Below are positions 42,294 through 45,485 of a stretch of 64,000 nt of DNA, piece by piece; position 1 is the first letter of the stretch, and each line of letters starts with the position of its first letter. A program made the translations under genes and the position numbers. Where the stretch lies: the NCBI RefSeq assembly GCF_016863555.1, contig NZ_BOPC01000013.1, positions 62,001 to 126,000 of the forward strand, in the 5' to 3' direction. The notes under the pieces were generated by a model. The model searched no databases and was not told the origin of the DNA. It saw only the letters and a program-made list of their open reading frames with translations. Origin of the DNA: Micromonospora qiuiae (GTDB taxonomy: Bacteria > Actinomycetota > Actinomycetes > Mycobacteriales > Micromonosporaceae).

Positions 42294-43214
42294 GTGAACC
42301 TTCTGGGCCGGGCCGAGGCCGCCATCGACCGTCGACTGAGCGCTGCCCGCCGCCGGTTTCCGGCCTTCAGCCACCTGTGGCGGGCCGGGGTGCTCTACAC
42401 CGATCTGCAGGGCGGTCGGCTGGCCGCCGCGATCGCCTACTACGGGTTCTTCGCCGTCTTCGCGCTGGCCCTGGTCGGCTACGCGGTCTTCGGCGCGATC
42501 CTTGAGGAGAACGACGAGGTCCGGGCGGCGGCGGAGGATTTCCTCCGGGAGAACCTGCCCTTCCTCGATCCGGCGCACGTCGCCGAGAGCAGCGGCACCG
42601 TTGGTGTGGTCGGTCTGCTCATCCTGGTGCTGACCGGGATCGGTTGGGTGGAGGCCATCCGGTCCTCGCAGCGGCTGATCCACGGTCTCGATCAGCATCC
42701 CGGCAACCTGGTCGTCCGCCGGTTGGTCGACCTCGGCGTGCTGCTCATGGTCTTCATGCTGCTCGGCGCCTCGGTGGCGGCGGTGGACGCGTTGGAGTCG
42801 CTGCTGCGCTTCCTGCTGGGCAGCACCGGCTCGATCGCGCTGACCACGATCAGCGCCGTGCTCAGTGTCCTGGTCAACGCGGTGCTGGCCACCCTGTTGC
42901 TGGTGGCGGTGCCGCGGTTGCGGATGAGCCGGGTCCGGCTGCGGCCGGTGGTGCTGCTCGTCGCGGTCGGCATCACCCTGCTCAACACGGTCGGCCGGTT
43001 CTGGGTGGGACGGGTCGAGCACAACCCGGCGTACACGGTGGTGGCGACCGCTGTGGGTCTGCTGGTCTACCTGTATCTGCTCAACCAGTTGGTGCTCTTC
43101 GGCGCGGCGCTGACGGCGACCAGCCGGCGCGGGCAGGTGGTGGATCTGGCGGCGCGCCGGCCGGCCGACCCCGACGTGGAAACCGGTCCGGGCACCCCGG
43201 GCGGAGCCGGCTGA
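42294..43214 (+). CDS. YihY/BrkB family inner-membrane protein
   Basis: 306 residues with six membrane helices (AIAYYGFFAVFALALVGYAV; VGVVGLLILVLTGIGWV; LVDLGVLLMVFMLLGASVAA; ISAVLSVLVNAVLATLLLV; VVLLVAVGITLLNTVG; VVATAVGLLVYLYLLNQLVLFG). GGRLAAAIAYYGFFAVFAL is the family entry motif. Once named ribonuclease BN, the family is now seen as a membrane protein of unknown transport role. AAGGA lies eight bases before the GTG. An insertion element follows. Confidence 0.88.
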   Translation: MNLLGRAEAAIDRRLSAARRRFPAFSHLWRAGVLYTDLQGGRLAAAIAYYGFFAVFALALVGYAVFGAILEENDEVRAAAEDFLRENLPFLDPAHVAESSGTVGVVGLLILVLTGIGWVEAIRSSQRLIHGLDQHPGNLVVRRLVDLGVLLMVFMLLGASVAAVDALESLLRFLLGSTGSIALTTISAVLSVLVNAVLATLLLVAVPRLRMSRVRLRPVVLLVAVGITLLNTVGRFWVGRVEHNPAYTVVATAVGLLVYLYLLNQLVLFGAALTATSRRGQVVDLAARRPADPDVETGPGTPGGAG

Positions 43215-43285
43215 ACCGGCGGAAGGGGTGTCTGCTGCTGGCGTGTCAGCGTTGTTTAGCGCTCTATGGGGTGCAGAGTGGTCGG

Positions 43286-43730
43286 GTGAATTTGAAGGAG
43301 TGGGCGGCATCCCAGGGCGTCGCGTATGTGACTGCGCGGCGGCAGTACGCGGCTGGGAAGCTTCCCGTTCCCACGTACCGTCTCGGGCGGCTGATTATGG
43401 TCGGAGAGCCATTAGCCGGTTCGGCCCCGACTGTGGGGCAGACGGTGGTGTACGCCTGTGTGTCGTCGGCTGACCAGAGGGCGGAGCTTGACCGGCAGGT
43501 GGCGCGTGTCGCTGTGCGGGCGACGGGGCAGGGTATTGCGGTGGATCGGGTGGTGACCGAGGTTAGATCCGCGTTCACCGGTCACCGTGAGAAGTTCCTC
43601 GCCCTGTTACGGGATCCTGGGCACGATCGTGGTTGAGCAGTCGTTGTGTGTCCGTCTGTACGGCCGGCGTGCCGCTGCGGACCGCGTCCGCCGGGCGGTC
43701 GAGGTTGTCACCGGGGACAGCTCCGCGTGA
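43286..43730 (+). pseudogene. tnpA: IS607 TnpA serine recombinase, broken
   Basis: The MerR-like DNA-binding domain (VNLKEWAASQGVAYVTARRQY) and the first part of the serine-recombinase domain (VSSADQRAELDRQVARV) are readable. The invariant Arg before VSS is Cys (YACVSS). After LLRDPG the frame shifts; the continuing frame reads GTIVVEQ and then joins SLCVRLYGRRAAADRV, so about 50 codons including EHRDR are deleted. The protein cannot be an active recombinase, so the element cannot move on its own. Confidence 0.85.
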
Positions 43731-45100
43731 AGACGATCCAGGCGTATCGCTACGCGTTGGACCTCACACCGGCGCAGGAGCGCGCGGCGTTGGCCCATGC
43801 CGGGGCGGCTCGGGTTGCCCATAACTGGGCGCTGGCCCGGGTGGTGGCGGTGATGAACCAGCGGGCGGCCGAACGCACCTACGGGGTCGCCGAGGTCGAT
43901 CTGACGCCCGCGATCGGTTGGTCGCTGCCGGCGCTGCGTAAGGCGTGGAACGCCGCGAAGGACGAGGTCGCGCCGTGGTGGCGGGAGTGCTCGAAGGAGG
44001 CGTTCAACACCGGTCTGGATGCTCTCGCCCGAGGGTTGAGGAACTGGTCCGATTCCCGCACCGGCAAGCGGGCTGGCCGGCTGGTCGGGTTTCCTCGGTT
44101 CAAGTCGCGTCGCCGACCGAGCGTACGGTTCACCACTGGACCGATCCGGGTGGAGCCGGACCGTAAGCATGTGGTGTTGCCCCGGCTGGGGCGGTTGAAG
44201 CTCCACGAGTCGGCGCGGAAGCTGGCTCGACGCCTTGACAACGGCACTGCCCGGATCATGTCGGCCACGGTGCGTCGTGAAGGCGGCCGGTGGCATGTGG
44301 CGTTCTGCGTCGAGGTGGACCGGGCCGACCGGGTACCAGCGTGCCCTGGCTCGGTGGTGGGTGTGGATGTCGGCATCACGCACTTGGCGGTGTTGTCCAC
44401 CGGTGAGCTGGTCGACAACCCGCGTCACCTGGCCGCCGCGCAGGCCCGGTTGCGGCGTCTGGGCCGGGCCCTGTCCCGCAAGACCGGCCCTGACCGGCGT
44501 ACCGGGCAGCGCCCGTCGAACCGCTGGCACCGCGCGTGCGCCCGGTTGGGCCGCGCGCATGCCCGGGTGAGCAATCTGCGTCGTGACGGCCTGCACAAGC
44601 TCACCACCCGCCTCGCCCGCACCCACGCCACGATCGTGGTCGAAGACTTGAATGTGGCCGGGATGCTGCGCCACCGCAGGCTGGCCCGGCACATCGCCGA
44701 CGCCGGCTTCGGCGAACTTCGCCGCCAATTGGCGTACAAACCGCAATGGAACGGCGGCCGGCTGATCGTGGCCGACCGCTGGTACCCGTCATCGAAAACC
44801 TGCTCAGGCTGCGGCGCGGTGAAAACCAAACTCGCCCTGTCCGAACGCACCTACACCTGCACCACCTGCGGCATGAACCTCGACCGCGACCTTAACGCCG
44901 CACGCAACCTCGCCGCTCTCGCGGCTGAGGTGGAGCCCGCCGGGAGTGGCCCGGTGGCCGGACGTGGAGCCGACCGTAAGACCCGCCCCGGCAGGCTGGT
45001 GGCTGTGAAGCGTCAACCCGGCACGGCGAACGCCGATCAGACCGGGACCGTCCCACCGCAAGGTAGGACTACCGATCACACGCTCACTAGAGCGCACTGA
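43727..45100 (+). CDS. tnpB: TnpB, RNA-guided nuclease of IS607 type
   Basis: 457 residues, Cas12f/TnpB fold and apparently complete. RuvC residues are all in place: Asp214 in GVDVGITHLAV, Glu306 in VVEDLNVAGM and Asp388 in NLDRDLNAARN. The zinc ribbon has CSGCG at 359-363 and CTTCG at 378-382. GTG 43727 overlaps the tnpA end. TnpB proteins cut DNA using a right-end RNA whose guide comes from the flanking sequence. The C-terminal 60 codons overlap that RNA. A live tnpB beside a dead tnpA is notable. Confidence 0.92.
   Translation: MKTIQAYRYALDLTPAQERAALAHAGAARVAHNWALARVVAVMNQRAAERTYGVAEVDLTPAIGWSLPALRKAWNAAKDEVAPWWRECSKEAFNTGLDALARGLRNWSDSRTGKRAGRLVGFPRFKSRRRPSVRFTTGPIRVEPDRKHVVLPRLGRLKLHESARKLARRLDNGTARIMSATVRREGGRWHVAFCVEVDRADRVPACPGSVVGVDVGITHLAVLSTGELVDNPRHLAAAQARLRRLGRALSRKTGPDRRTGQRPSNRWHRACARLGRAHARVSNLRRDGLHKLTTRLARTHATIVVEDLNVAGMLRHRRLARHIADAGFGELRRQLAYKPQWNGGRLIVADRWYPSSKTCSGCGAVKTKLALSERTYTCTTCGMNLDRDLNAARNLAALAAEVEPAGSGPVAGRGADRKTRPGRLVAVKRQPGTANADQTGTVPPQGRTTDHTLTRAH
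45000..45100 (+). ncRNA. Probable TnpB guide-RNA scaffold (reRNA), right end
   Basis: In IS607/IS605 elements the guide RNA overlaps the tnpB 3' end and runs into flanking DNA. Here GTCCCACC and GGTAGGAC (45050-45069) form a stem with a GCAA tetraloop and one mismatch, close to the element end. The guide would start just after 45100. The 5' boundary is not visible and is set arbitrarily. Confidence 0.4.
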
Positions 45101-45116
45101 AAGGTAACGGAGAGGC

Positions 45117-45485
45117 GTGGAGATCTCGATCGAGCCGGGTTCGCCGGTGCCGCCGTACGAGCAGGTGCGCGGGCAGCTCGCGGAGATGGTGGGGGACGGA
45201 CGGCTGCCGGTCGGCGCGAAGCTGCCGACGGTACGGCGGCTCGCGGCCGAGCTGGGGCTGGCGGTGAACACGGTGGCTCGGGCGTACCGCGAGCTGGAGT
45301 CGGCGGGGCTGCTGGAGACCCGTGGCCGGCACGGCACCTTCGTAGCTCCCGGACGCGACGACGCGGTGGACCGGTTGCAGCGGCTCGCCGCCGGGTACGC
45401 GGCCGAGGCAGCCCGGCTGCAGGTGGCACCGGAGATGGCGGTGTCCCTGGTCCGGGCCGCCCTCGACGCTGCCCGGCCCGGCTGA
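45117..45485 (+). CDS. GntR family regulator (YtrA-like, short)
   Basis: 122 residues: winged HTH (PPYEQVRGQLAEMVGDGRLPVGAKLPTVRRLAAELGLAVNTVARAYRELE) and only a 45-residue helical tail, as in the YtrA subfamily, which often controls ABC transporter or envelope genes. GGAG sits four bases before the GTG. The insertion element ends 16 bp before the start, so the native promoter has probably been displaced. Confidence 0.87.
   Translation: MEISIEPGSPVPPYEQVRGQLAEMVGDGRLPVGAKLPTVRRLAAELGLAVNTVARAYRELESAGLLETRGRHGTFVAPGRDDAVDRLQRLAAGYAAEAARLQVAPEMAVSLVRAALDAARPG

What the first reader, a model, noticed from the sequence alone, without database searches (positions are those of the whole stretch)
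43286..45100. IS607 element with a dead recombinase but an intact RNA-guided TnpB
tnpA has lost about 50 codons, is frameshifted and lacks the conserved Arg next to the active Ser, yet tnpB keeps its RuvC triad (Asp214, Glu306, Asp388) and all four zinc Cys over 457 codons without a stop. Neutral decay should have hit both. Either tnpA broke very recently, tnpB is mobilised in trans, or tnpB is kept for its own activity, as in domesticated TnpB regulators.
Basis: partly seen in the sequence, partly recalled or inferred. Interest (0 to 1): 0.65.

Follow-up and report, generated by a model that had tools for sequence, protein, structure and literature searches.

The report
Dead transposase, living RNA-guided nuclease
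A small jumping element in a soil bacterium has a broken transposase but an intact RNA-guided DNA-cutting enzyme, and related copies suggest that natural selection keeps the cutter working after the transposase has died.

Summary
Window 43225-45110 is an IS607-family element of a Micromonospora genome. Its tnpA is frameshifted, has lost 137 bp and has Cys for the active-site Arg; its tnpB is intact.

No copy was found at this site in other species, but the proposed test works elsewhere. In one same-site pair whose tnpA died before the species split, tnpA evolves neutrally (omega 0.81) and tnpB does not (0.19). A second pair gives tnpB 0.36. Three broken sisters of the window copy agree (tnpA 1.03, tnpB 0.36). 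In the census 45 of 90 copies have intact tnpB without intact tnpA; 5 of 90 the reverse. So tnpB is probably kept for its own activity, most simply RNA-guided retention at the insertion site. Host domestication is not supported.

Pseudogene TnpAs beside intact TnpB are already published for IS607. Unexpected: loss of the active-site Arg (mostly to Cys) recurs, also in full-length TnpAs, one of them under purifying selection, so it alone does not show a decaying gene.

The parts
43225..45110 (+). whole IS607-family element, with GG at both ends (left G-run 43225-43228, right GG 45109-45110)
   Evidence: left and right ends aligned across copies; brkB-gntR junction without the element in L117
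43286..43729 (+). tnpA pseudogene (serine recombinase): 5-bp and 132-bp deletions, frameshift, Cys for the active-site Arg; first open frame ends near 43636
43727..45100 (+). tnpB, intact 457 codons, IS607-type RNA-guided nuclease
   Evidence: Pfam, NCBIfam NF038280 572 bits, RuvC and zinc residues
45007..45073 (+). RF03015 Transposase-2 RNA; by its position the scaffold of the omegaRNA (inference)
   Evidence: cmscan 66.4 bits, gathering 42.7
44960..44968 (+). GGACGTGGA box upstream of the scaffold, kept at a fixed distance in most relatives; two RNA-only remnants in this genome begin exactly here
45103..45110 (+). right end GGTAACGG
   Evidence: exact in 55 of 119 unique copies searched
45111..45130 (+). 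presumed guide of the omegaRNA: host DNA next to the right end (inferred)
   Evidence: different in copies at different sites; only its own place in the genome at up to 3 mismatches over 22 bases
45117..45485 (+). gntR-type regulator gene whose start lies in the presumed guide
   Evidence: Pfam GntR, sequence
42294..43214 (+). brkB/yihY-type membrane protein gene, left neighbour
   Evidence: Pfam PF03631

Best explanation
This is a non-autonomous copy of an actinobacterial IS607-family element that inserted at a GG between brkB and gntR and whose transposase gene broke later. The TnpB-omegaRNA pair remains intact and is most likely still a working RNA-guided nuclease whose guide is the flank at the insertion site. 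It would cut alleles of the site that lack the element, and repair from a copy that has it restores it: a homing or drive-like retention that needs no transposase. Shown: the anatomy, the intact coding and RNA parts, the selection pattern in relatives and in the window's clade. Inferred: expression, cleavage, TAM, and repair from an element-bearing copy.
For: Same-site pair L176/L186, tnpA dead before the split (shared +1 frameshift and 3-bp deletion; shared right junction): tnpB omega 0.186 (67S:37N, p=1.5e-16), tnpA 0.81 (18.5S:41.5N, p=0.54), difference p=2.4e-5. Same-site pair L184/L190, most of tnpA deleted in both: tnpB omega 0.363, p=1.8e-3. Three broken sisters of the window copy: tnpA 10S:27N (omega 1.03), tnpB 35S:34N (omega 0.36, p=2.7e-5), difference p=0.024. 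Window-private tnpB changes 12S:11N, omega 0.34, p=0.009. Census: tnpB intact without intact tnpA 45 of 90, the reverse 5 of 90, p=4e-9. RF03015 over threshold in the window and in 18 further loci of a 20-locus search. Published: TnpB acts as a drive of insertion sequences on plasmids (PMC11870625, passages read).
Against: No same-site copy exists for the window element itself, so its own tnpB was not tested in place. The window's tnpA remnant was still constrained until recently (omega 0.15), so passive lag is not excluded for this copy. L186 tnpB has since been frameshifted. Private tnpB changes of L150 are 6S:11N, no clear constraint. Pair L030/L052 shows no constraint, with few changes (tnpB 3.3S:18.7N, p=0.23). 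The copies are not independent and were gathered mostly with tnpB-rich queries. The energy fold of the RNA is no better than shuffles. No expression or cleavage data.
Confidence: 0.65

Rival explanations
1. Passive lag: tnpA broke very recently in this copy and tnpB has simply not had time to break; nothing selects for it here.
For: tnpA up to the lesion shows omega 0.15 against L150; only 3S:2N private tnpA changes.
Against: Census asymmetry 45 to 5 of 90, although tnpB is the longer target; neutral tnpA beside constrained tnpB in L176/L186 and in the broken sisters; window-private tnpB changes are themselves constrained (p=0.009).
Confidence: 0.17
2. Trans-mobilised passenger: tnpB is kept because elements with dead tnpA are still moved by TnpA from other copies, and selection acts on elements that spread.
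For: tnpA-less copies form a clade in several species without shared flanks; the own genome has a full-length tnpA in the C32 copy, though with Trp for the Arg; the ends of the window copy are intact.
Against: Selection on tnpB continues at unmoved sites (L176/L186, L184/L190); IS607 tnpA is reported to be needed close to the ends (PMC6188088, passage read).
Confidence: 0.13
3. Host-domesticated regulator: TnpB with its RNA regulates the gntR gene or another host gene.
For: The presumed guide covers the gntR ribosome-binding site and start codon.
Against: RuvC residues are intact; no other match of the guide in the genome at up to 3 mismatches; guides differ between copies at different sites; no listed match in 151 genus genomes spans brkB and the element.
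Confidence: 0.05

Closest known systems
IS607 TnpB loci with pseudogene TnpA (PMC11061315; passages read)
   Same: IS607 element with an RNA-guided TnpB; that paper reports that 30% of the TnpAs in its two-ORF loci are pseudo proteins by frameshift or stop
   Different: Actinobacterial subfamily with an RF03015-type RNA at the tnpB 3' end; here selection on tnpB after tnpA death was measured at fixed sites
TnpB drive of insertion sequences on plasmids (PMC11870625; passages read)
   Same: TnpB cutting of element-free copies as a reason for keeping it
   Different: Shown there on plasmids in the laboratory; here inferred on a chromosome from sequence
TldR, nuclease-dead TnpB-derived regulators (abstract start seen in listing; details recalled)
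   Same: TnpB-like protein apart from a working transposase, with a guide next to a gene start
   Different: The RuvC residues are intact here and the guide matches only its own flank
IS1341-type tnpB-only elements (named in passages of PMC9956272; details recalled)
   Same: tnpB persists without tnpA
   Different: Here a tnpA remnant is present and the family is IS607 by tnpB model and relatives

Membership tests
IS607 family element | serine-recombinase TnpA of IS607 type | tested here: met
   full-length TnpA of sister copy L150 matches NF033518 (162.8 bits, cut-off 110); the window remnant is 94% identical to it over 111 residues but matches no Pfam model itself
IS607 family element | IS607-type TnpB | tested here: met
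   NF038280 572 bits, cut-off 350
IS607 family element | GG at the ends, insertion at GG | tested here: met
   right end ...GGTAACGG and left G-run; the empty-site comparison is with another species only
IS607 family element | able to transpose on its own | tested here: not met
   tnpA is a pseudogene; it is a defective member
TnpB-omegaRNA (OMEGA) system | intact RuvC triad and zinc motif | tested here: met
TnpB-omegaRNA (OMEGA) system | structured RNA at the tnpB 3' end reaching the right end | tested here: met
   RF03015 over threshold; energy fold alone z -0.66
TnpB-omegaRNA (OMEGA) system | RNA-guided DNA cleavage | not testable with these tools
   needs an assay
TldR-like domesticated regulator | inactivated RuvC | tested here: not met
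   Asp214, Glu306 and Asp388 present
TldR-like domesticated regulator | guide matching a host target elsewhere | tested here: not met
   only its own flank at up to 3 mismatches over 22 bases

The most novel reading that the evidence does not exclude
In these elements the TnpA recombinase is repeatedly altered at one active-site residue (Arg, mostly to Cys) while the protein stays under selection. Either it works without an Arg that serine recombinases were thought to need, or it is kept in a disarmed form for a non-catalytic role, while TnpB carries the element as an RNA-guided homing drive.
Probability: 0.2. Interest if true: 0.65.

Novelty: new member of a known kind. Interest (0 to 1): 0.42.

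Why it matters
Why TnpB is so common although its carriers seem to move little is an open question. Same-site pairs in which tnpA is neutral and tnpB is not separate the fates of two genes at one locus and one age, and point to a benefit of TnpB that needs no transposase. The recurrent loss of one active-site Arg in TnpA allows a direct biochemical test of whether that Arg is essential in IS607 transposases.

Tried and rejected
Assembly error in tnpA: not supported, since sister copies carry different lesions and share the Cys. Shared insertion site for the window copy: no listed match in 151 genus genomes spans brkB and the element (list cut), and (160 genomes, best two candidates scored in each, E up to 1e-100) gave none. 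Of seven pairs first taken as same-site by flank similarity, L118/L156 have different guides and the two L051 pairs had no junction verified; these three were not counted. L102/L197 share only one flank and were not tested. Two-step codon argument for Cys (from CGG): weakened, because the outgroup L156 has CGT, one step away. L097/L102, both Cys with tnpA omega 0.096, is not used as proof, because an Arg-type copy (L096) nests among them. The Val at residue 58 of L144 comes from aligning across a deletion and is no real substitution. Energy fold of the RNA: no better than shuffles. The third protein was in the wrong frame for tnpA and says nothing. Searches counted out-of-frame codons of L153; from then on its positions 30-57 were left out. 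Rows dropped before the census count: L221 and L219 (duplicates), L036 and L217 (contig ends), and 15 rows with tnpB under 68% identity (L224 among them); L153 was set to tnpA broken by hand. Class-wide motif count: Cys form in 2 of 394 genomes (4 matches), Arg form in 11 of 394 (20 matches). Literature searches; no listing showed a report of the Arg-to-Cys variant, but only listings and passages of some papers were seen.

Full report
What is there. The window lies in a Micromonospora-genus genome (G000:C13; the genus name rests on relatives such as those). Between brkB (42294-43214) and gntR (45117-45485) sits an IS607-family element with its left-end G-run at 43225-43228 and its right end GGTAACGG at 45103-45110. 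tnpA is a pseudogene: 5-bp and 132-bp deletions and Cys for the Arg of the YARVSS motif. tnpB is intact, 457 codons, with RuvC Asp214, Glu306 and Asp388 and a CxxC...CxxC zinc motif, and scores 572 bits against the IS607_TnpB model. An RF03015 RNA overlaps the tnpB 3' end (66.4 bits); by position it is the omegaRNA scaffold (inference). The presumed guide starts right after the right end, runs over the gntR ribosome-binding site and start codon, and matches nothing else in the genome at up to 3 mismatches over 22 bases.

Relatives. The window, L150, L153 and L155 have Cys at the Arg site (L154 has lost that stretch); the outgroup L156 has CGT, Arg. The window, L153, L154 and L155 each have further private tnpA lesions, while L150 is full length. 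The five have intact tnpB. The simplest reading is that the Cys came first, copies then came to lie at five sites, and later lesions are private.

Selection in this clade. Window against the four sisters: tnpB omega 0.20-0.24; tnpA up to the lesion against L150, 0.15, so the window's final tnpA break is recent. Changes private to one copy (a strict count that misses repeated hits): window tnpB 12S:11N (omega 0.34, p=0.009), window tnpA 3S:2N (too few). The three broken sisters together: tnpA 10S:27N (omega 1.03), tnpB 35S:34N (omega 0.36, p=2.7e-5), tnpA against tnpB p=0.024. L150, full length but Cys-type: tnpA 16S:4N (omega 0.095, p=1.6e-6), tnpB 6S:11N (no clear constraint).

Flanks of the 119 unique copies were compared where more than 200 bp were held. 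Four pairs share the site with matching right junctions. L176/L186: tnpA dead before the split; tnpB omega 0.186 (67S:37N), tnpA 0.81 (18.5S:41.5N), difference p=2.4e-5; in L186 the left end is lost and tnpB has since been frameshifted. L184/L190: most of tnpA deleted in both, tnpB omega 0.363, p=1.8e-3. L013/L120: both genes constrained (0.217 and 0.149), tnpA broken later in both. L030/L052: few changes, tnpB 3.3S:18.7N, not significant, and tnpB broken in L052. Thus two of four pairs bear on the question and both show tnpB under selection after tnpA death at an unmoved site; one pair is silent on it and one is uninformative.

Census. Of 109 rows, 90 subfamily copies were kept. tnpB is intact in 71 of 90; among these tnpA is intact in 26, broken in 30 and absent in 15. 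tnpA is intact with tnpB broken in 5; in 14 neither is intact. The set was gathered mainly with tnpB-rich queries and two candidates per genome, with 20 loci added from a tnpA search, and copies are not independent, so the proportions are indicative. In the own genome, C28 has intact tnpB with tnpA lacking its middle, and C32 has full-length tnpA (Trp at the Arg site) with broken tnpB.

The Arg site. Among 85 TnpA copies covering residue 58 (some of them duplicates or distant families) there are 63 Arg, 15 Cys, 4 Gly, 2 Trp and 1 Val (the Val is an alignment effect); parsimony needs 16 changes there, against 3 at Y56, 1 at V59, 5 at S60 and 2 at R123. Among 42 TnpAs called intact, 9 lack Arg (6 Cys, 2 Gly, 1 Trp). 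Three copies in a distant member of the class, G300, carry the Cys motif, one of them with a long uninterrupted TnpA. Most of these keep the other residues that I took, by recalled homology, as active-site, but not all: L150 has Gly at D122 and Cys at R126, L153 likewise, L145 and L155 Gly at 122, and L102 Gly at V59. So the change recurs and is compatible with retention of the protein; whether it abolishes, lowers or leaves activity is unknown. L150 may well be inactive and yet selected, which would suit a non-catalytic role. Part of the pattern may be ordinary C-to-T change or exchange between copies.

Mechanism. TnpB would guide itself to the joined, element-free site and cut it, and repair from a chromosome with the element would restore it. 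With a dead TnpA this no longer serves excision but could still convert element-free alleles that arrive by recombination, as in the published plasmid drive (PMC11870625, passages read). Shown: anatomy and selection. Inferred: cutting, TAM and conversion. The base before the left G-run is A in 16 of 32 scored copies, a weak hint of a G-rich TAM like the published AGGAG or GAGGG (PMC11061315, passages read).

Known or new. Broken TnpA beside intact TnpB in IS607 is in print (30% in PMC11061315, passage read). The element is a new member of a known kind. The same-site selection contrast and the recurrent loss of the Arg are the parts that I did not see reported in the listings and passages seen.

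Noticed in passing
L148 (G000:C25:11270-11420, - strand) and L146:6142-6294 (G000:C125): Two omegaRNA-only remnants of about 150 bp, from two different subfamilies, both begin exactly at the internal GGACGTGG box (window 44960) and end at the right end. At C25 relatives show that about 310 bp of host DNA were replaced, with GG at both junctions.
   Followed up: partly
L249, L271/L288, L275: RF03015 RNAs of another subfamily that share about 240-340 bp with each other, have no window-type TnpB in the 3 kb held and lie in unrelated flanks.
   Followed up: partly
own genome G000: Six RF03015 RNAs against two intact window-type TnpBs found (C13, C28); the RNAs at C25, C41 and C125 have no intact TnpB beside them.
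   Followed up: partly
L093 (G148:C1:3525336-3527195): Another species has a related element about 1.6 kb downstream of brkB, in the same neighbourhood but at a different place.
   Followed up: no
L111, left end: This copy's left end follows directly on a GGTAACGG right-end sequence, as if inserted next to another element.
   Followed up: no
L144/L160: Own copy C28 and an M. sonchi copy are 98% identical in tnpB but have different tnpA lesions and different flanks.
   Followed up: partly
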